Assembly (NCBI GenBank): GCA_003448025.1
Contig: DLXL01000168.1
Span: 1 to 7,808, forward strand
Length of the DNA stretch: 7,808 nt
Direction: 5' to 3'
Source: Saprospirales bacterium
GTDB lineage: Bacteria; Bacteroidota; Bacteroidia; Chitinophagales; Saprospiraceae
The translations under genes were made by a program, and so were the position numbers. This document shows, one piece after another, positions 369-7,808 of the stretch. Under the pieces are notes generated by a model, which saw only the letters and a program-made list of their open reading frames with translations, was not told the DNA's origin and made no database searches. The first letter of the stretch is position 1; each line of letters opens with the position of its first letter.

Positions 369-534
369 GTTATTGGGGTAGCGGGATTGGCGTGTTAGGC
401 AAATGTGCGAACTTTAGACGTAAGCACAAAGTGATTTTTACTTTTTTATCCAGGTGAACCAACTCAAAGTACCCAAATTGTCGTCAATCATGGAAACAGA
501 TCAACTTTTTACTCCATATTGCAGGTTTTTAACC

Positions 535-1137
535 ATGAAAAGCACCCTTATACTTCTGTTGAGTTTATTATTTCTCTCCGGTCGGGTCATTGCTCAAGAT
601 ACTGACCAGGAAAAAGAGAAGCCTTTCCTTGTTATCTTAACGGGTATTGGGGTTCAATGGTTTGATGTGGGGCGGAAATTAACCTCCTTATCGATTGAAC
701 GACCCTTGAATGCTAATGTCCATTTCGGCCTGCAGGGTAGTTATTATTTCCCCAAATCAGCAGATTATTATGGATTTCTCATGCACGACAATGGATTTGA
801 AGCCGGTTTATACCTTAAATACTTCCTTCATGGAAGATTCTCAGGAAGAAAGAGTGGGTTATATCTGGGACCAGAAATTCGTTTTGGCAAACAAAAGTTC
901 CGATATGTGAATGATATTTTTTTCCCGCTACCGCCATCACCCGACATGATACAAGGCTCTTCAACAGATTTTAAATTGGCGTTTCGCTGGGGTATACAAC
1001 GCCAGATCGGGCATGCCGTGCTGGAATTAGCTTGCCCGATTGGCGTGGCTTTTGTGCAATCAGATTATGAACAGGCTTATGAGAATGGTGGTAAATTCAT
1101 CATGATGCCTTTGTTTCAGCTAGGATATGCTTTTTGA
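535..1137 (+). CDS. Secreted outer-membrane beta-barrel-like protein, function unknown
   Basis: This is a 200-residue protein. I chose the ATG at 535, not the in-frame GTG at 454 or ATG at 490, because it gives a clean signal peptide: MK, then a hydrophobic core (LILLLSLLFLSG), then VIA followed by Gln, predicting cleavage after residue 20. The rest is rich in Gly and aromatic residues in alternating amphipathic stretches (for example FGLQGSYYF, GLYLKYFLHG, GLYLGPEIRFG), and the chain ends FQLGYAF with a C-terminal Phe, the usual outer-membrane beta-barrel signal. An eight- to ten-strand porin-like or OmpA-like barrel is likely; no ligand or enzyme motif is visible. An AGG at 523-525 is a weak Shine-Dalgarno candidate. 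The gene lies upstream of the cys leader with no clear terminator between, but a new promoter follows, so it is probably a separate unit. Confidence 0.7.
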   Translation: MKSTLILLLSLLFLSGRVIAQDTDQEKEKPFLVILTGIGVQWFDVGRKLTSLSIERPLNANVHFGLQGSYYFPKSADYYGFLMHDNGFEAGLYLKYFLHGRFSGRKSGLYLGPEIRFGKQKFRYVNDIFFPLPPSPDMIQGSSTDFKLAFRWGIQRQIGHAVLELACPIGVAFVQSDYEQAYENGGKFIMMPLFQLGYAF

Positions 1138-1344: not shown

Positions 1345-1377
1345 CTTGCACATGTTCCAGGAATGCCCATAAGTTTG
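1345..1377 (+). promoter_or_regulatory. Bacteroidota-type promoter of the cys leader and operon
   Basis: CTTG at 1345-1348 and an exact TAAGTTTG at 1370-1377, with a 21-base spacer, fit the -33/-7 promoter pattern of Bacteroidota (TTTG and TAnnTTTG). The expected transcript start is near 1381-1384. It lies directly before leader peptide 1, whose ATG is at 1382, so the message would be leaderless or nearly so. No comparable promoter is visible between the two terminators or between terminator 2 and the first large gene, so this is the best candidate for driving the whole operon. Confidence 0.5.
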
Positions 1378-1381
1378 CAGC

Positions 1382-1474
1382 ATGATTTTAACGAATTCCT
1401 TTAACGCTAATTGTTGTTGTTGTTGTCCGGCTACGGCTCTCCGAAGCGGTCGCAACTTCTCATGTACGCGTTGA
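1382..1474 (+). CDS. Cysteine-rich leader peptide 1 (attenuator)
   Basis: This is a 30-codon ORF that starts ATG ATT TTA and ends CGT TGA. The peptide begins MILTNSFNAN, continues with five consecutive Cys codons, all TGT (1412-1426), then PATALRSGRN, and ends FSCTR, with a sixth Cys near the end. An in-frame TAA at 1370-1372 (inside the -7 promoter box) leaves ATG 1382 as the only ATG start. The peptide itself is unlikely to matter; as in trp or his leaders, the ribosome's progress through the Cys run would sense charged Cys-tRNA. It is followed 46 bases later by terminator 1. A run of TGT could be a simple triplet repeat, but the short ORF, the terminator, the second independent copy and the cysteine operon downstream together argue for a leader. 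There is no Shine-Dalgarno sequence. Confidence 0.72.
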   Translation: MILTNSFNANCCCCCPATALRSGRNFSCTR

Positions 1475-1532
1475 ACCTCTGGAATTTTTCAGCGCAATTA
1501 CATCAGAATTTTTGCGCCAGAAGCCCTTCGGA
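1440..1532 (+). promoter_or_regulatory. Candidate antiterminator of attenuator module 1, enclosing a hairpin
   Basis: UCCGAAGCGGU (1440-1450), inside leader 1 and 13 bases after its Cys run, repeats the start of the terminator's 3' arm. It can pair with the terminator's 5' arm GCCCUUCGGA (1523-1532): seven contiguous Watson-Crick pairs, a bulged C1447, two more G-C pairs and a G-U pair. Between them lies a hairpin with a 6-bp stem, GCGCAA (1492-1497) with UUGCGC (1512-1517), which would bring the two strands together. A ribosome stalled at the first Cys codons would leave 1440-1450 free, so forming this helix would prevent termination. GAAG (1443-1446) can instead pair with CUUC (1456-1459), a possible weak competitor. 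Pairings were found by eye, without energy calculation. Confidence 0.5.
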
Positions 1533-1556
1533 AATACTCCGAAGGGCTTTTTTTTT
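1521..1556 (+). terminator. Intrinsic terminator 1 (leader attenuator)
   Basis: A perfect 12-bp stem, AAGCCCUUCGGA (1521-1532) with UCCGAAGGGCUU (1538-1549), has a 5-base loop, and the U-run extends from 1548 to 1556. The U-tract is on the plus-strand side only; on the minus strand the stem is followed by CTGG. It follows leader peptide 1 and lacks a large gene in front of it, which marks it as an attenuator, not the end of an operon. Confidence 0.85.
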
Positions 1557-1578
1557 ACCATTCAATTTTACCCTTAGC

Positions 1579-1671
1579 ATGTCCCATTTTTTCCTTCACT
1601 CTTGTACTTGTTGTTGCTGTTGCTGTCAGGACCCACCCGCCGGGAGCTTGCAAACAGTTATTGGAGTTTAG
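1579..1671 (+). CDS. Cysteine-rich leader peptide 2 (attenuator)
   Basis: This is a second 30-codon ORF, ATG 1579 to TAG 1669-1671. The peptide begins MSHFFLHSCT, followed by six consecutive Cys codons (1609-1626, TGT TGT TGC TGT TGC TGT), then QDPPAGSLQT and VIGV; with the Cys at 1603-1605 it has seven Cys. Mixed TGT and TGC codons show that Cys is kept rather than a DNA triplet repeat. The frame stays open upstream to about 1411, but that would read through terminator 1, so the 30-residue form is preferred; it equals leader 1 in length although the two peptides otherwise look unrelated. No Shine-Dalgarno sequence is visible. Terminator 2 begins 33 bases after the stop. The likely role is sensing of charged Cys-tRNA for the sulfate-assimilation genes that start at 1765. 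Confidence 0.75.
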   Translation: MSHFFLHSCTCCCCCCQDPPAGSLQTVIGV

Positions 1672-1718
1672 GATAACATTCTGACATACAATAACGTACA
1701 CAGCAAAGCCCTTCGGCG
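1638..1718 (+). promoter_or_regulatory. Candidate antiterminator of attenuator module 2, enclosing a hairpin
   Basis: CGCCGGGAGCUU (1638-1649), in leader 2 and 11 bases after its Cys run, resembles the terminator's 3' arm (CGCCGAAGGGCUU). It can pair with the terminator's 5' arm (1706-1718): CGCCG with CGGCG, two G-U pairs, one mismatch, one G-C pair, a bulged C and CUU with AAG. The helix would enclose a hairpin GUUAUUG (1657-1663) with CAAUAAC (1689-1695), whose loop contains the leader's stop codon. This is the same plan as module 1: Cys run, antiterminator strand, inner hairpin, terminator. Pairings were found by eye. Confidence 0.5.
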
Positions 1719-1739
1719 AGATTCGCCGAAGGGCTTTTT
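1705..1739 (+). terminator. Intrinsic terminator 2 (leader attenuator)
   Basis: A perfect 15-bp stem, AAAGCCCUUCGGCGA (1705-1719) with its complement (1723-1737), has a 3-base loop and runs into a short U-tract ending at 1739. It shares the core AAGCCCUUCGG/CCGAAGGGCUU with terminator 1. It ends only 25 bases before the first operon gene, leaving no room for a promoter, so it must be read through or bypassed for the operon to be expressed. That placement is diagnostic of an attenuator. Confidence 0.85.
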
Positions 1740-1764
1740 CTATTTCACCAAAACGCTTTCGAAT

Positions 1765-2223
1765 ATGTCTGGCTCAAACAACGTGGTATGCCCCATTTCC
1801 ACAAAAAGAATTAATGAAAATGTAGTGCGACTGGTTGCCCTATTGGTCATTGCAGTGGCCGTACTGGGTTGGTTAACTGGCTCCAGGCTGGTATTCCTGC
1901 TACTGGCTTTTGATTTTGGTTTGCGCGCCTTCAGTTCCGGATATTACAGTCCACTGCGACTGGCTGCTCAATGGATTGCTCAAAAAAGCTCGCTGAGTGT
2001 AAAGCTCACCGATGCTGCTCCTAAAAAATTTGCTGCTGGAATCGGACTCGTATTTGGCTTTTCCATTGCACTGGCTCTAACCCTCCACTGGGACGCCATA
2101 GCTGCCGTACTGAGCGGAGTTCTTGTGTTTTGCGCTTTCCTGGAATCAGCTTTGAGCTTTTGTGTTGGCTGCGTGGTTTACAGCTTGTTAAACCGTTTTT
2201 TAGTCCTCACTTCGATAAAATAA
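1765..2223 (+). CDS. DUF4395-type integral membrane protein
   Basis: This 152-residue protein is the first structural gene of the operon. It begins near a Cys-Pro pair (Cys9-Pro10), followed by NENVVRLVAL, an FDFGLRAF stretch (residues 49-56), DAAPKKFAAGIGL (83-95) and a C-terminal FCVGC (132-136). These features fit the DUF4395 family as I know it. Hydrophobic segments at about 21-39, 41-56, 90-107, 110-128 and 130-147 predict four to five membrane helices in the inner membrane. Conserved-looking cysteines (9, 123, 133, 136; the last two as CxxC) suggest thiol or metal chemistry, but no reaction is established for the family. The stop is 8 bases before cysH, so the two are tightly coupled. 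Its place directly behind the Cys attenuators implies a part in sulfur uptake or in handling sulfite, sulfide or thiols; this is inference. No Shine-Dalgarno sequence is seen at ATG 1765. Confidence 0.82.
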   Translation: MSGSNNVVCPISTKRINENVVRLVALLVIAVAVLGWLTGSRLVFLLLAFDFGLRAFSSGYYSPLRLAAQWIAQKSSLSVKLTDAAPKKFAAGIGLVFGFSIALALTLHWDAIAAVLSGVLVFCAFLESALSFCVGCVVYSLLNRFLVLTSIK

Positions 2224-2231
2224 GCTCCAAA

Positions 2232-2954
2232 ATGCACATTTCAGCCAATATTTTACCAGAACTAAAGGAAGCTCATGCGCAAATTCAGGAGCAGGGCCCC
2301 ATGGTAACCCTGGCCTGGATTGCTGAAAAATTCCCGGGGCTTGTCACCTTCAGCACCAGCTTCGGCATAGAGGATCAGATTATTGCTCACCTCATTTTCA
2401 GTCAGCAACTTCCCATTGAAGTCTTTACCCTGGATACCGGACGGCAGTTTACGGAAACCTACAGTACCTGGACCAGAACTCTGGAACGATACGGGCAGCC
2501 CATCTCTGTGTATGCTCCGAAAGCAGAATCGTTGGAACACATGTTGACTACACAGGGTCCCAACGGATTTTACGAATCTGTGGAAAAGCGCAAACAATGC
2601 TGCCAGGTAAGGAAAGTAGAGCCTCTGGAAAGGGCACTGGCTGGTAAAAAGCTCTGGATCACCGGCATCCGGGCAGAACAATCTGCCAACCGGCAACATA
2701 TGAGCTCCCTGGAGTGGGATGATAGCCATCAATTACTCAAGTTTCATCCCTTGTTCGACTGGCCATTTGAGCAGGTAAAATCCTTCGTGAAGGAGCATAA
2801 AGTACCCTACAACGCATTGCACGACAAAGGTTTTGTAAGCATTGGATGCGCTCCCTGCACCAGAGCAATTACGCCGGGAGAAGATTTCCGGGCAGGCCGG
2901 TGGTGGTGGGAAGATGCCTCCAAAAAGGAGTGTGGATTGCATCAGGCTAATTGA
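2232..2954 (+). CDS. cysH: Assimilatory adenylyl-sulfate (APS) reductase
   Basis: This 240-residue cytoplasmic enzyme reduces APS to sulfite and AMP, using thioredoxin or a similar thiol donor. Family motifs are STSFGIED (41-48), LDTGR (67-71) and GIRAEQS (145-151), together with the C-terminal catalytic Cys in KKECGLH (Cys234). The paired cysteines KRKQCCQVRK (Cys123, Cys124) and CAPC (Cys206, Cys209) form the CC/CxxC set that binds a [4Fe-4S] cluster. This marks APS reductase (EC 1.8.4.10) rather than the cluster-free PAPS reductase of E. coli. I chose ATG 2232, 8 bases after the upstream stop; the in-frame ATG at 2130 would add 34 residues, overlap the DUF4395 gene and is unlike the family N-terminus. 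The absence of an APS kinase nearby agrees with direct use of APS. Confidence 0.93.
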   Translation: MHISANILPELKEAHAQIQEQGPMVTLAWIAEKFPGLVTFSTSFGIEDQIIAHLIFSQQLPIEVFTLDTGRQFTETYSTWTRTLERYGQPISVYAPKAESLEHMLTTQGPNGFYESVEKRKQCCQVRKVEPLERALAGKKLWITGIRAEQSANRQHMSSLEWDDSHQLLKFHPLFDWPFEQVKSFVKEHKVPYNALHDKGFVSIGCAPCTRAITPGEDFRAGRWWWEDASKKECGLHQAN

Positions 2955-3027: not shown

Positions 3028-3936
3028 ATGTCCCGATCATTCGACTATCTAGATCATTTAGAAGCCCAGGCCATTCACATCTTGCGTGAAGTGGCCGGCC
3101 AATTTGAACGTCCCGCGTTACTGTTTTCAGGTGGAAAAGACTCCATTACCCTGGTGAGATTGGCAGAAAAGGCCTTCCGGCCTGGAAAATTTCCCTTTCC
3201 GCTGGTACATGTGGATACCGGGCACAATTTTCCGGAAGTGTTGGCTTACCGCGACCAGCTTGCCAAAAAACTTGGAGAACAATTGATTGTCAGGAAAGTA
3301 GAAGATACGATTAAGCGGCAGGGATTAACAGATGGTTCCGGAAAGTTTCCAACCCGAAATGCCCTTCAAACCTATACCCTGCTGGAGCTGATTGAAGAGT
3401 TTGAATTTGATGCGTGTATAGGCGGCGCACGCAGAGATGAAGAAAAAGCGCGCGCCAAGGAGCGCATCTTCAGCATTCGCGACGAGTTCGGGGCATGGGA
3501 CCCCAAGCGGCAGCGCCCGGAACTGTGGGACACATACAATGGCGCCATCCGAAAAGGCGAAAATGTGCGGGTTTTTCCTATTTCAAACTGGACCGAACTG
3601 GATGTATGGCAGTACATCCGACGGGAACAAATTGAGTTGCCGGATATCTATTTTTCACATTCCAGGAATTGCGTGGTGATGCCCGGAGGACAATTGTTGG
3701 CTGTTACGCCTCATATTCGGCTTGATTCAGAAGATATTACTGCAGTGCGAAATGTGCGCTTCCGTACGGTTGGCGACGCTACCTGCACAGCGGCAGTAGA
3801 AAGCAGGGCAAGCACCATTGAGGATATTATTCAGGACATACTCACCACCAAAATTTCGGAAAGAGGCGCCACCCGGCTCGACGACAGGCTTTCGGAAGCT
3901 GCTATGGAAGACCGGAAAAAGAACGGCTACTTCTGA
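3028..3936 (+). CDS. cysD: Sulfate adenylyltransferase subunit 2 (ATP sulfurylase small subunit)
   Basis: This 302-residue protein has the same length as E. coli CysD as I remember it. It catalyses adenylation of sulfate with ATP to give APS, driven by GTP hydrolysis in CysN. Visible motifs are the PP-loop SGGKDS (34-39), HVDTGHNFPE (61-70), GGARRDEEKAR (132-142) and the typical C-terminus RGATRLDDR (279-287) ending DRKKNGYF. ATG 3028 is chosen because it gives the standard N-terminus (SFDYLDHLEAQAIHILREV begins at residue 4); an in-frame ATG at 2842 would overlap cysH by over 100 bases in another frame. The 73-base gap after cysH contains no terminator. CysN follows after 150 bases. Confidence 0.95.
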   Translation: MSRSFDYLDHLEAQAIHILREVAGQFERPALLFSGGKDSITLVRLAEKAFRPGKFPFPLVHVDTGHNFPEVLAYRDQLAKKLGEQLIVRKVEDTIKRQGLTDGSGKFPTRNALQTYTLLELIEEFEFDACIGGARRDEEKARAKERIFSIRDEFGAWDPKRQRPELWDTYNGAIRKGENVRVFPISNWTELDVWQYIRREQIELPDIYFSHSRNCVVMPGGQLLAVTPHIRLDSEDITAVRNVRFRTVGDATCTAAVESRASTIEDIIQDILTTKISERGATRLDDRLSEAAMEDRKKNGYF

Positions 3937-4086: not shown

Positions 4087-5370
4087 ATGAATATTCTGAA
4101 ATTTATAACTGCCGGATCGGTAGATGATGGGAAAAGCACACTGATTGGTCGGCTGTTGTTTGATTCCAAGGCGGTTTCGCACGATATCTTACACACGCTG
4201 GAAAGACAGAGTCGCAACAAAAATGCCGGCGAACTGGATCTTTCTTTGCTGACAGACGGATTGCGGGCAGAACGCGAGCAGGGCATCACGATTGATGTGG
4301 CTTATAAATATTTCAACACCTCCAAACGCAAGTTCATCATTGCTGATGCTCCGGGGCATGTTCAGTATACCCGAAATATGGTTACTGGCGCCAGTAATGC
4401 AGACTTGGCCATTATTCTGGTGGATGCACGCCAGGGTATTGTGGAGCAAACCCACCGCCATAGTCTGATTGCAGCCCTGATGGGCATTCCACACATCCTG
4501 GTGGCCGTGAATAAAATGGACCTGGTGGGATACGACGAGCAGGTGTTTTACAAAATTGCACTTGACTACCAGAAACTGGCCCAAAAACTGGGCTTGCAGG
4601 AAGTAAAAATCATCCCGATCAGTGCCGTAGTGGGCGATAATGTGGTGCACAGATCCAATCATACGCCCTGGTATACCGGCGAAACCTTGCTGCAACATCT
4701 GGAAACCGTAGAAATCAGTCACGACCTTCCGGAAGATCAGGCCAGATTCCAGGTACAGTATGTGATCAGACCCGGCCATGATGATTATCATGATTACCGA
4801 GGTTATGCCGGCGCCCTGCGCAGTGGTTTCTTCAGAAAAGGCGACCGTGTGAGGGTTCTCCCTTCAGGTATTGAAACCACCCTTAAAGCTATTGAAGTAC
4901 ACCAAAAAGAAGTAGCTGAAGCCTTTGCACCACAACCTGTAGTGCTGCATCTGGCAGATGATATTGATGTGTCAAGAGGCGATTCCCTGATACGGGTTGA
5001 AGATGCACAACCTGTTGTTTCCCAGGATATTGAGCTGGAAATATGCTGGATGAGCGACCGCCCTCTTAAAGTTGGCGACCGCTACCTGCTAAGGCACAAT
5101 GCTGCGCACACCAAGGCCGTGGTGAAAGAAATTTATCACCGGGTGGACGTACATTCTTTCGAGCCACATGCCATTGATGCCATTCAACTGAATGATATAG
5201 CCCGAATCAAACTGAGGACTGCTCGTCCACTCGTGTTTGATGCTTATCGCCAAAACCGGGCCAGCGGAGGACTCATCCTGATCAACGAGACCACGTTTGA
5301 TACCGTTGCGGCAGGCATGCTCAGAGAACTTCCCCGCGAAGAACCCGCCACCACTGAATTTGATATTTAA
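4087..5370 (+). CDS. cysN: Sulfate adenylyltransferase subunit 1 (GTPase)
   Basis: This 427-residue translation-factor-type GTPase pairs with CysD to activate sulfate. GTPase motifs appear in order: P-loop GSVDDGKST (10-18), GITID (66-70), DAPGH (87-91), NKMD (142-145) and ISA (178-180), followed by beta-barrel domains typical of EF-Tu relatives; ERQSRNK and LTDGLRAEREQGITID are characteristic of CysN. The protein ends after these domains (EEPATTEFDI), so there is no fused CysC APS-kinase domain as in NodQ-type proteins. That agrees with the cluster-bearing APS reductase encoded upstream, which needs no PAPS. The ATG at 4087 abuts an 8-bp repeat tract. The next gene begins after a 136-base gap full of hairpins. 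Confidence 0.95.
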   Translation: MNILKFITAGSVDDGKSTLIGRLLFDSKAVSHDILHTLERQSRNKNAGELDLSLLTDGLRAEREQGITIDVAYKYFNTSKRKFIIADAPGHVQYTRNMVTGASNADLAIILVDARQGIVEQTHRHSLIAALMGIPHILVAVNKMDLVGYDEQVFYKIALDYQKLAQKLGLQEVKIIPISAVVGDNVVHRSNHTPWYTGETLLQHLETVEISHDLPEDQARFQVQYVIRPGHDDYHDYRGYAGALRSGFFRKGDRVRVLPSGIETTLKAIEVHQKEVAEAFAPQPVVLHLADDIDVSRGDSLIRVEDAQPVVSQDIELEICWMSDRPLKVGDRYLLRHNAAHTKAVVKEIYHRVDVHSFEPHAIDAIQLNDIARIKLRTARPLVFDAYRQNRASGGLILINETTFDTVAAGMLRELPREEPATTEFDI

Positions 5371-5385
5371 ACCGCAACAAAATTA

Positions 5386-5426
5386 TCGCCCCGATGGGGC
5401 TACTGGAATGTCGCCCCGATGGGGCT
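5386..5426. repeat. Two copies of a palindromic REP-like element (25-base period)
   Basis: TCGCCCCGATGGGGCT occurs at 5386-5401 and 5411-5426, separated by ACTGGAATG. Each copy is a hairpin with a GCCCC/GGGGC stem and a GAT loop, and the two copies could also pair with each other. There is no U-tract, so this is not an intrinsic terminator. From memory, GCCCCGATGGGGC palindromes are dispersed in many Bacteroidota genomes, in the manner of REP elements. Here it sits 15 bases after the cysN stop. Confidence 0.8.
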
Positions 5427-5506: not shown

Positions 5507-6376
5507 ATGTCTCATTTTTTTGATTTCCAATCCTTTAACGAGAAAAAAACGGGCATCAATATTCCGGTTTCCACCCTTGTATCCGGCGTTTCCAAACCCA
5601 AACTGACGGTAGTCGGTGCAGGAATCGGCGACCCGGACCATATTACGCTCAAGGCCATTAAGGCTTTGCAAACCGCCGATGTGGTGCTGTATGATGCACT
5701 GGTGAACGAAAGTTTGCTCGACTATGCACCAGCGCTGGCCGCCAGAATTTTTGTTGGCAAGCGTCGCGGCGCTAAATCATACACACAAGAGGAAATTCAC
5801 GAACGCATTGTGGCCTACGCCAAATGCTGCGGGCATGTGGTGCGGCTGAAAGGTGGAGATCCATTTGTATTCGGCAGAGGATTGGAGGAATTGCAATATG
5901 CGCAGGCGTATGGACTGGAAACGGCCTATGTGCCCGGAATTTCCAGTGCAATTGCAGGAGCAGCCGCAGCAGGTATTTCGGTAACGCTGCGTGGAGTGAG
6001 CAGAAGCTTCTGGACAATAACAGCTACCACCGATACAGGTGAACTGAATCCGGATATCCTGGCAGCCGCTCAAAGCGACGCAACAGTGGTGGTGCTGATG
6101 GGCCTTGCCAAGTTGAAGGAAATTGGTCGGATTTTTCAGAATGCCGGAAAATCCGACTGGCCCGTTGCTGTGATCCAAAACGCTACCTGCGAGCAACAAA
6201 AATCCACTTTTGGCACTGTCACCAATATACTCGACCAGGTGGAGCAATTTCAGATCGGAAGCCCGGCGGTCATCATTCTAGGTCCGGTGGTTGAACATCG
6301 CTGGCAGGCAGAAGACACTGAAGATCAGGCACTTGCATTGGAGTTGCTGCGCCTTTCCAGCACAGAAGTATTTTGA
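5507..6376 (+). CDS. cobA: Uroporphyrinogen-III C-methyltransferase (siroheme pathway)
   Basis: This 289-residue enzyme of the SUMT/CobA family transfers two methyl groups from S-adenosylmethionine to uroporphyrinogen III, giving precorrin-2 on the way to siroheme, the cofactor of sulfite reductase. Motifs are VVGAGIGDPDHITLKA (35-50; the family usually has GAGPGDP, here Ile replaces Pro), RLKGGDPFVFGRG (113-125), VPGISSAIAG (142-151) and QNATCEQQKSTFGT near the C-terminus. It is a stand-alone methyltransferase: the dehydrogenase/ferrochelatase half of E. coli CysG is not fused and must be elsewhere. I chose ATG 5507; the in-frame ATG at 5297 would overlap cysN by 74 bases and read through the hairpins. 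The first 30 residues (MSHFFDFQSF...) precede the usual domain start and form a short extension. CysJ begins 22 bases after the stop. Confidence 0.9.
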   Translation: MSHFFDFQSFNEKKTGINIPVSTLVSGVSKPKLTVVGAGIGDPDHITLKAIKALQTADVVLYDALVNESLLDYAPALAARIFVGKRRGAKSYTQEEIHERIVAYAKCCGHVVRLKGGDPFVFGRGLEELQYAQAYGLETAYVPGISSAIAGAAAAGISVTLRGVSRSFWTITATTDTGELNPDILAAAQSDATVVVLMGLAKLKEIGRIFQNAGKSDWPVAVIQNATCEQQKSTFGTVTNILDQVEQFQIGSPAVIILGPVVEHRWQAEDTEDQALALELLRLSSTEVF

Positions 6377-6398: not shown

Positions 6399-7808
6399 AT
6401 GACAACGCCCAAACTTGCTCCCATAGATCAGGATTTGTTGCAACGGCTAACCAACGGCCCAACGGTGCTCCAGCAAATGTGGCTGAGTGGTTATTTATAT
6501 GCCCTGGCTTCGCAATCTGAGGTGGCTGTTTTGCCTCAGTCCATCCAGCAGTCCCAGGCGCCATCAGAACTTCCGGACCCACCCGTGATAACGGTGTTGT
6601 ATGGATCACAAACCGGGAACAGCAAAAAAGCAGCGCAAAAAGCAGTAGCCAGCCTACAGACACAAGGATGGAAAACCAACCTGGCGGATTTGAACGACTA
6701 CCCAACCCGCCAGCTCAAATCCGAAAAACGCATCCTGCTCGTGGTGAGTACCCAGGGAGAAGGCGAACCTCCGGCGTCAGCCGAAGAATTCTATCAATGG
6801 TTGATGAGCAACCGGGCGCCCCGATTGGAAGGCCTGGAGTTTGCGGTGTGTGCCCTGGGCGATAAATCTTACCTGAAATTCTGCCAAACCGGAAAAGACT
6901 TCGATGCCAGACTGGAGGCATTGGGCGCCCGCCGATTGAGTGCGCGGGTAGATTGCGACGTTGATTTCGAAGCACCTGTGGAAGCATGGATTCAGCAGTT
7001 GCTGAAAGACCTGCCCGTTCCGGCATCCGCCGCCTCCAAATCGGTTGCACTGCAGTATGTTGACACCGCCAAAAGTAATGGCCATTTTCAGGAAAAACAG
7101 AGTCAATACGACCGAAAAAGTCCATTTCAGGCTGCATTACTGGCTAAAACACCTTTGAATGGTCGGGGATCCAAAAAAGAAACCTGGCATCTGGAGTTTT
7201 CGCTGGAGGGTTCCAACCTATCCTATCAGCCGGGAGATGCGCTCGGTATTTATCCGCAGAATCCGCCTGCGCTTGTGAAGGAAGTGCTGTATGCCGCTAT
7301 GTTGAACGGTCATAAGCTCGTGACGTACAATGGCCGGGAAATGCCGTTCAGGCAGGTATTGCTTAAAGAAGTAGAGTTGAGCGTGCTCACGAAAGAGATG
7401 TTGGAAAACTATGCAGCATGGACCAACAATGCCCGGATCAAAGCCATTCTGGCCGATCCGACGGCCCTGAAAACTTTCCTGTACGGCAGGAATGTTGCCG
7501 ATTTATTGCGGGAATTCCCTGCGGCTTTGTCGGAAGAAACCCTATTGCAGTTCCTGCGCAAAATGCCTCCACGCTTGTACTCTATAGCCTCCAGTCCGGA
7601 AGTATACCCGGATGAGGTGCATTTAACGGTTGCTGCAGTAAGGTATTTATTCAATGATCGGGCGCATGCGGGGGCAGCCTCCACCTTCCTTGCCGACAGG
7701 GTTGAAGCCGACGATAAGGTGCCGGTGTTTGTAGCGCAAAATGAATATGTCAAACTGCCGGAAAACGATCAAACCGATATCATCATGGTTGGCCCTGGCA
7801 CCGGGGTT
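6399..7808 (+). CDS. cysJ: Sulfite reductase (NADPH) flavoprotein alpha subunit, partial at right edge
   Basis: The frame is open from ATG 6399 to the window end, 470 complete codons, and lacks its C-terminus (the family is about 600 residues). Order: an N-terminal helix region with WLSGYLYAL (28-36) as in CysJ; a flavodoxin domain with the FMN loop YGSQTGNS (68-75), STQGEGEPP (117-125) and ALGDKSY (152-158); a linker; an FAD domain with SYQPGDALGIYP (275-286), RLYSIASS (392-399) and GAASTFLADR (425-434); and the start of the NADPH domain, MVGPGTGV (463-470). It passes electrons from NADPH via FAD and FMN to the sirohaem subunit CysI, which is probably encoded next. The start is supported by the family-like N-terminus. 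Nitric-oxide-synthase or P450 reductase relatives are unlikely given the neighbours. Confidence 0.93.
   Translation, partial: MTTPKLAPIDQDLLQRLTNGPTVLQQMWLSGYLYALASQSEVAVLPQSIQQSQAPSELPDPPVITVLYGSQTGNSKKAAQKAVASLQTQGWKTNLADLNDYPTRQLKSEKRILLVVSTQGEGEPPASAEEFYQWLMSNRAPRLEGLEFAVCALGDKSYLKFCQTGKDFDARLEALGARRLSARVDCDVDFEAPVEAWIQQLLKDLPVPASAASKSVALQYVDTAKSNGHFQEKQSQYDRKSPFQAALLAKTPLNGRGSKKETWHLEFSLEGSNLSYQPGDALGIYPQNPPALVKEVLYAAMLNGHKLVTYNGREMPFRQVLLKEVELSVLTKEMLENYAAWTNNARIKAILADPTALKTFLYGRNVADLLREFPAALSEETLLQFLRKMPPRLYSIASSPEVYPDEVHLTVAAVRYLFNDRAHAGAASTFLADRVEADDKVPVFVAQNEYVKLPENDQTDIIMVGPGTGV

What the first reader, a model, noticed from the sequence alone, without database searches (positions are those of the whole stretch)
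1345..1767. Tandem polycysteine attenuators in front of a sulfate-assimilation operon
One promoter is followed by two complete modules, each with a 30-codon leader ORF (5 and 6 consecutive Cys codons) and an intrinsic terminator, then six sulfur genes. The two leader peptides have equal length but otherwise unrelated sequence, and the second uses mixed TGT/TGC codons, so selection acts on Cys codons and not on a DNA repeat. Leader-peptide attenuation is classical for trp, his and leu. Polycysteine upstream ORFs have, to my knowledge, been described in mycobacteria, but a doubled transcriptional Cys attenuator in Bacteroidota is not something I know. Two terminators in series would give tighter repression and a steeper response to Cys-tRNA than one.
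Basis: partly seen in the sequence, partly recalled or inferred. Interest (0 to 1): 0.93.

Follow-up and report, generated by a model that had tools for sequence, protein, structure and literature searches.

The report
Doubled cysteine-sensing switch before sulfur genes
Two short reading frames packed with cysteine codons, each followed by a predicted transcription-stop hairpin, sit in series in front of a bacterium's sulfur-assimilation genes and likely let those genes be read only when cysteine runs short; the same design recurs before other cysteine genes in related bacteria.

Summary
In detail: a Bacteroidota-type -7 box (1370-1377), leader 1 (1382-1474, 5 Cys), terminator 1 (1519-1556), leader 2 (1579-1671, 6 Cys), terminator 2 (1705-1739), then DUF4395, cysH, cysD, cysN, a uroporphyrinogen methyltransferase and cysJ. 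In the window's genus 19 of 20 cysH loci carry a polycysteine leader plus terminator; the exception is cut by a contig end. I collected 119 distinct leader regions, mostly from the order: 80 single, 39 double, before cysK, sulfite/nitrite reductase, cysH, cysE, cysS, metY and others. First leaders are likely leaderless; second leaders lack their own -7 box (0 of 39). It works like classical leader-peptide attenuation, for cysteine, in series. The listed results of my library searches showed no same-signal tandem leader-peptide attenuator and no polycysteine attenuator in Bacteroidota. The response to cysteine is untested.

The parts
1346..1377 (+). Predicted Bacteroidota promoter: TTG 1346-1348 and -7 box TAAGTTTG 1370-1377; predicted +1 at 1382
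   Evidence: Sequence; TAnnTTTG within 22 nt of the ATG in 24 of 80 single and 14 of 39 first leaders, shuffled expectation 0.0095; box at -12 to -5 in F. psychrophilum (passage of PMC9723704)
1382..1474 (+). Leader ORF 1, 30 codons, five consecutive Cys codons at 1412-1426; likely leaderless
   Evidence: conserved in the genus
1440..1450 (+). Predicted antiterminator element 1 (TCCGAAG, bulged C, GGT), pairs with 1523-1532
   Evidence: Duplex -16.2 kcal/mol, 2% of shuffled leaders as good
1519..1556 (+). Predicted intrinsic terminator 1 with T tail
1579..1671 (+). Leader ORF 2, 30 codons, six consecutive Cys codons at 1609-1626; no -7 box upstream
1638..1649 (+). Predicted antiterminator element 2 (CGCCGGG, bulged A, GCTT), pairs with 1706-1718
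   Evidence: Duplex -15.5 kcal/mol, 5% of shuffled leaders as good; its orthologues in G020 and G060 do no better than 43% and 13% of shuffles
1705..1739 (+). Predicted intrinsic terminator 2 with T tail
1765..2223 (+). DUF4395 protein, first gene of the operon
   Evidence: PF14340, E 1.4e-32
2232..2954 (+). cysH, phosphoadenylyl- or adenylyl-sulfate reductase
3028..3936 (+). cysD, sulfate adenylyltransferase small subunit
4087..5370 (+). cysN, sulfate adenylyltransferase large subunit
5507..6376 (+). Uroporphyrinogen-III C-methyltransferase (siroheme pathway)
6399..7808 (+). cysJ-like sulfite reductase flavoprotein, cut by the window end
   Evidence: TIGR01931, 511 bits, below its cut-off of 668 on this truncated protein; Pfam flavodoxin and FAD-binding domains

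Best explanation
Two polycysteine leader ORFs, each with its own predicted terminator hairpin, lie in series before the sulfate-assimilation operon and likely act as two ribosome-mediated transcription attenuators that sense cysteine-charged tRNA. Transcription is predicted to start at the A of leader 1's ATG (1382), so leader 1 would be translated as a leaderless message. When Cys-tRNA is plentiful the ribosome would run to the stop codon, cover the antiterminator element just after the Cys run, and let terminator 1 form. When Cys-tRNA is scarce the ribosome would stall on the Cys codons, leaving the element free to capture the terminator's 5' arm, so that RNA polymerase reads on. The same choice would then be made at leader 2, which has no promoter box of its own, before the sulfur genes are reached. 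Shown here: ORFs, Cys runs, hairpins, complementary elements that vary together with their terminators, conservation, gene neighbours. Inferred: transcription start, translation, stalling, read-through, and multiplication of the two gates.
For: Anatomy. Conservation at 19 of 20 cysH loci of the genus. Own leader-terminator pairing averages -14.6 kcal/mol in 130 modules, shuffled leaders -9.2, swapped terminators -10.6 (5000 deals: sd 0.22, best -11.6); 88 modules without CCCTTCGG terminators give -13.3 against -9.7. 85% of best duplexes start 6-18 nt past the last Cys codon, 26% in shuffles. The element CGAAG, found in 44 of 158 modules, stands in all three phases of the leader frame (17, 8, 19), so RNA and not peptide is kept. 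-7 box exactly 4 nt before the ATG in 24 of 38 boxed first or single leaders; no box within 70 nt of 39 second leaders. Downstream genes of 119 regions are largely those of cysteine supply, including cysS.
Against: No transcript or expression data. 41 of 130 modules do not beat 95% of their shuffled leaders; 79 of 130 do not beat 95% of foreign terminators with another core; leader 2 orthologues in G020 and G060 are among the weak ones. Leader 1 of the window pairs with terminator 2 better than with its own, and over 39 doubles leader 1 prefers its own terminator in only 24, leader 2 in 29. Shuffled leaders also capture 6 or more terminator-arm bases in 101 of 158 folds (native 157). Only 38 of 119 first or single leaders have an exact -7 box within 22 nt. 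Peroxiredoxin, ATP-grasp and TonB receptor genes are not textbook cysteine genes.
Confidence: 0.87

Rival explanations
1. The polycysteine ORFs act mainly by translation or Rho: a stalled or released ribosome changes access to the next start site or to Rho, as described for mycobacteria, and the hairpins matter little.
For: Mycobacterial polycysteine ORFs are leaderless and tune translation of downstream genes (review passage, PMC9031893); Chitinophagaceae and kin show Cys runs ending at the stop codon without clear terminators.
Against: Hairpin with T tail at all 28 aligned modules of the genus, co-varying with the leader element; in the window about 90 nt lie between leader 2's stop and the first gene's ATG.
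Confidence: 0.07
2. The hairpins are ordinary terminators of the upstream gene, or the second module is a decaying duplicate, and the Cys ORFs encode small proteins of their own, for example metal-binding peptides.
For: Cys-rich peptides can bind metals (established knowledge); the second leader's element in the window differs from the usual CCGAAGCGG.
Against: Outside the Cys run the peptides are not conserved and the element is read in three phases; module 2 is kept in three species with 6 Cys codons and a hairpin; doubling recurs at other genes.
Confidence: 0.04
3. A metabolite riboswitch or T-box controls the terminators, and the Cys runs are incidental.
For: Terminators upstream of biosynthetic genes are also typical of riboswitches (established knowledge).
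Against: No Rfam family reaches its threshold; none of 7 Bacteroidetes/Chlorobi genomes had a T-box in a 2008 survey (passage of PMC2494555); in the alignments the conserved columns are the ATG, Cys codons, pairing element and hairpin.
Confidence: 0.02

Closest known systems
Classical ribosome-mediated leader-peptide attenuators (trp, his, leu of enterobacteria; recalled)
   Same: Leader ORF with a run of regulatory codons, antiterminator against terminator, operon of the same amino acid
   Different: Cysteine; two complete modules for one signal; likely leaderless first leader; one simple antiterminator pairing instead of the 1:2, 2:3, 3:4 set
Polycysteine leaderless short ORFs of mycobacteria (Canestrari et al. 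2020; not held; seen as citations and passages in PMC9031893 and PMC13236596) and the 2005 prediction for cys operons (passages of PMC1262725)
   Same: Runs of Cys codons before cys operons; leaderless
   Different: No terminator hairpins were found there and attenuation is described at translation; here intrinsic terminators with matching antiterminators, and doubling
uORFC-8-2 motif before cysS of Rhodobacterales (passages of PMC8632094)
   Same: Cys codons, stems and a terminator; predicted ribosome-mediated attenuation
   Different: Usually two Cys codons, alphaproteobacteria, single
Tandem attenuators of Salmonella mgtCBR (abstract of PMC3641672)
   Same: Two leader ORFs in one leader mRNA
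   Different: There the two answer different signals (ATP and proline), called a singular example; here both carry Cys runs
Leader-peptide hints in transcript maps of Flavobacterium psychrophilum and Bacteroides thetaiotaomicron (passages of PMC9723704 and PMC7366714)
   Same: Same phylum; short ORFs in 5' regions, in F. psychrophilum before amino-acid operons
   Different: No cysteine leader or doubling in the passages seen; their supplements could not be read here

Membership tests
Ribosome-mediated leader-peptide transcription attenuator | Short ORF with a run of codons for the regulated amino acid | tested here: met
   5 and 6 consecutive Cys codons; 0 of 5000 shuffles reach 4
Ribosome-mediated leader-peptide transcription attenuator | Intrinsic terminator between leader ORF and structural genes | tested here: met
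   Predicted hairpins with T tails, 1519-1556 and 1705-1739; no 3'-end data
Ribosome-mediated leader-peptide transcription attenuator | Mutually exclusive antiterminator within reach of the stalled ribosome | tested here: met
   Pairing elements co-vary with terminators over 130 modules; 41 of 130 modules weak on their own
Ribosome-mediated leader-peptide transcription attenuator | Controls genes of that amino acid's supply | tested here: met
   cysH, cysD, cysN, cysJ-like; cysK, cysE, cysS, metY elsewhere
Ribosome-mediated leader-peptide transcription attenuator | Read-through depends on charged tRNA | not testable with these tools
   Needs expression data
Mycobacterial polycysteine leaderless attenuators | Leaderless polycysteine ORF | tested here: inconclusive
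   Polycysteine met; leaderless predicted from the -7 box 4 nt before the ATG, no 5'-end data
Mycobacterial polycysteine leaderless attenuators | No intrinsic terminator; control at translation or by Rho | tested here: not met
   Terminator hairpins present
T-box or other Rfam leader families | Match to the family's covariance model | tested here: not met
   0 matches at gathering threshold in the window; sub-threshold hits only
mgtCBR-type tandem attenuators | Two leader ORFs in series that answer different signals | tested here: not met
   Both ORFs carry Cys runs

The most novel reading that the evidence does not exclude
Bacteria of the order Chitinophagales, and in a Met/Cys version some Flavobacterium, run their cysteine regulon by serial Cys-tRNA attenuators: a leaderless first gate and an internally translated second gate sensing the same tRNA, whose leaks multiply to give a sharp off-state. 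Same-signal doubling is a recurrent design here, near-standard before the sulfite/nitrite reductase gene.
Probability: 0.6. Interest if true: 0.88.

Novelty: new variant of a known kind. Interest (0 to 1): 0.82.

Why it matters
How Bacteroidota sense cysteine is, as far as I know, open (recalled). If true, this gives a simple, directly testable control that spans genes from cysE to cysS in a large environmental order; the first same-signal tandem leader-peptide attenuators in what my searches listed; a role for leaderless messages, which are rare in the phylum (5.5% of F. psychrophilum mRNAs, PMC9723704 passage; about 3.7% of B. thetaiotaomicron 5' UTRs under 10 nt, PMC7366714 passage); and a natural test of whether two attenuators in series multiply. 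Leaders of this kind could also help to annotate genes of cysteine supply.

Tried and rejected
DUF4395 as a search handle: 5 of 60 relatives, own included, have it, and viral contigs gave nothing; cysH was used instead. Plasmid search with 1300-1800: no match. No tRNA in the window. Rfam sub-threshold hits, best E 0.014 (His_leader), rejected. Counting genomes by model hits was rejected as a measure of prevalence: many hits cover only the terminator or are other amino-acid leaders. 'A polycysteine attenuator before every Bacteroidota cysH' was rejected: in the phylum sample (145 of 296 genomes with a match) only the best loci were held; none of the 29 besides the own one (L045-L073) has a Cys run of 3 or more with a separate terminator. 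Permuting terminators ignores relatedness, so shuffles and different-core swaps stand beside it; on different cores only 51 of 130 modules beat 95% of foreign terminators. Four modules were dropped before the pairing test for a leader stretch under 30 nt. The collection of 119 regions used filters (ATG start, 11-60 codons, one run of 4 Cys or more, hairpin -12 kcal/mol or better, 28 nt from Cys run to hairpin; loci L009-L227), so regions failing them are not counted.

Full report
What is there. The window lies on a contig of G000, a draft genome of 648 contigs and 5.3 Mb. On the + strand it holds a Bacteroidota-type promoter, two leader ORFs with 5 and 6 consecutive Cys codons, two terminator-type hairpins, and six genes: DUF4395, cysH, cysD, cysN, a uroporphyrinogen-III methyltransferase and a cysJ-like flavoprotein cut by the window end. 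No ORF with 4 consecutive Cys codons appears in 5000 dinucleotide shuffles of 1345-1767, and the scan finds none elsewhere in the window. Both modules fold far better than shuffles (z -4.9 and -4.4).

Whose genome. 

Conservation in the genus. A cysH search of the 42 genomes held for the genus finds it in 20. At 19 of these 20 loci a leader with 4-7 consecutive Cys codons and a terminator lies upstream. The twentieth (G033) has only about 120 nt of contig left past the match, and a double leader sits near the end of another contig of that genome. Doubles occur in G000, G020, G060, G010 and, on the split contig, G033: the own locus and its four nearest relatives by CysH identity (91, 88, 73, 69%), which suggests one doubling in this lineage. 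The exact hairpin AGCCCTTCGG-loop-CCGAAGGGCT was sought in five genomes of the genus: 6 sites in 4 of them, all 6 at cysteine leaders, so it belongs to the element and is not the genome's common terminator.

The missing piece. After the Cys run 17 of the 28 aligned genus modules carry CCGAAGCGG. It can pair with GCCCTTCGG of the terminator's 5' arm, with one bulged base. CGAAG, present in 44 of 158 modules, stands in all three phases of the leader frame (17, 8 and 19), for example as RSG, EAA or PKG in the peptides: RNA, not peptide, is kept. In other genera both partners change together: GGAAAGGC in the leader with GCCTTTCC in the terminator in L114, L116, L121 and L122. In 130 modules own pairing averages -14.6 kcal/mol, shuffled leaders -9.2, swapped terminators -10.6; 89 of 130 beat 95% of their shuffles, 41 do not. 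85% of the best duplexes start 6-18 nt past the last Cys codon, against 26% for shuffles; this is about where the front of a ribosome stalled on Cys would end (inference). In the window the pairs are 1440-1450 with 1523-1532 (2% of shuffles as good) and 1638-1649 with 1706-1718 (5%); for the second leaders of G020 and G060 the shuffles do as well in 43% and 13%, so element 2 is the weaker case.

Start of transcription. An exact -7 box TAnnTTTG lies within 22 nt of the ATG in 24 of 80 single and 14 of 39 first leaders, against 0.0095 per leader in shuffles, and the gap is exactly 4 nt in 24 of these 38. In F. psychrophilum the box spans -12 to -5 (passage of PMC9723704), which puts +1 on the A of the ATG: leader 1 is predicted to be leaderless. 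Second leaders have no exact box within 70 nt (0 of 39, against 19 of 39 first and 42 of 80 single), so they would be reached only by read-through of terminator 1.

A regulon. With a covariance model of 28 genus modules and one of 81 modules I searched genus and family, then order and phylum, and fetched further stretches. After filters and removal of copies 119 regions remain: 80 single, 39 double, none triple. By first downstream gene (single/double): cysK 22/10, NirA-type sulfite or nitrite reductase 5/17, cysH 16/2, DUF4395 0/3, another PAPS-reductase-domain gene 5/0, 1-Cys peroxiredoxin 10/2, cysE 6/0, RimK-like ATP-grasp 6/0, metY 2/0, TonB receptor 2/0, cysS 1/0, unassigned 5/5. One or two representatives of each new class were named by hmmscan; the rest were assigned by BLAST to them. 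Runs reach 11 Cys codons (L112). These counts describe what was collected, not prevalence.

Beyond the order. Of 29 other cysH loci from a phylum-wide sample none has a polycysteine leader with a separate terminator, but one (L062) has two Met/Cys-rich leaders, each with a terminator. Among 80 named cysH loci Flavobacterium limnosediminis and F. humi show such a double Met/Cys leader and F. urocaniciphilum a single one. Some Chitinophagaceae have Cys runs ending at the stop codon without a clear terminator, perhaps another mechanism. Polycysteine leaders with terminators also turned up in members of the phylum outside the order (L199, L201, L202, L210, L212).

Mechanism and limits. The anatomy commits me to ribosome-mediated transcription attenuation by Cys-tRNA, twice in series. 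Folding the RNA left free by a ribosome stalled on Cys captures 6 or more bases of the terminator arm in 157 of 158 modules, against 13 of 158 for a ribosome at the stop codon; but shuffled leaders reach 101 of 158 and the released state simply offers less RNA, so the means (10.5-10.8 stalled, 6.6 shuffled, 1.4 released) say more than the counts. Modules are not fully private: leader 1 of the window pairs with terminator 2 at -18.3 and with its own at -16.2; over 39 doubles leader 1 prefers its own terminator in 24 and leader 2 in 29. Order of synthesis would still favour the own partner for leader 1 (inference). That two gates multiply is arithmetic, not evidence.

Novelty. I saw the listings, capped at 10-25 papers each, of ten searches of the held open-access library and passages or abstracts of nine papers. 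They showed mycobacterial polycysteine ORFs, a Rhodobacterales cysS leader with two Cys codons, tandem attenuators for different signals in Salmonella, and general hints of leader peptides in Flavobacterium and Bacteroides; none showed polycysteine attenuators in Bacteroidota or same-signal tandem leader peptides. Most subscription journals are missing from that library and supplements could not be read, so this is no proof of absence.

Noticed in passing
L207 (match near 1501): Two leader ORFs in series rich in Ile/Val codons, each with a terminator: doubling may not be special to cysteine.
   Followed up: no
L215; L216 and L218: A Thr-rich leader with terminator (L215) and Met-rich leaders, two in series (L216, L218), found by the same model at phylum scale.
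   Followed up: no
L062, L280, L300, L305 upstream of cysH: Leaders mixing Met and Cys codons with terminators, doubled in L062, L300 and L305.
   Followed up: partly
L054, L055, L059, L242, L263, L265 upstream of cysH: Cys-rich leader ORFs with Cys runs at or near the stop codon and no clear separate terminator, mostly Chitinophagaceae or Chitinophagales.
   Followed up: no
L120, L133, L141, L145, L148: Polycysteine leaders before a RimK-like ATP-grasp gene of unknown substrate.
   Followed up: no
L092, L163: Polycysteine leaders before TonB-dependent receptor genes, perhaps for uptake of a sulfur compound.
   Followed up: no
window 454-1137: ORF of 227 codons upstream of the promoter with no Pfam match.
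   Followed up: no
window about 5388-5424: The palindrome GCCCCGATGGGGC stands twice in the spacer between cysN and the methyltransferase gene.
   Followed up: no
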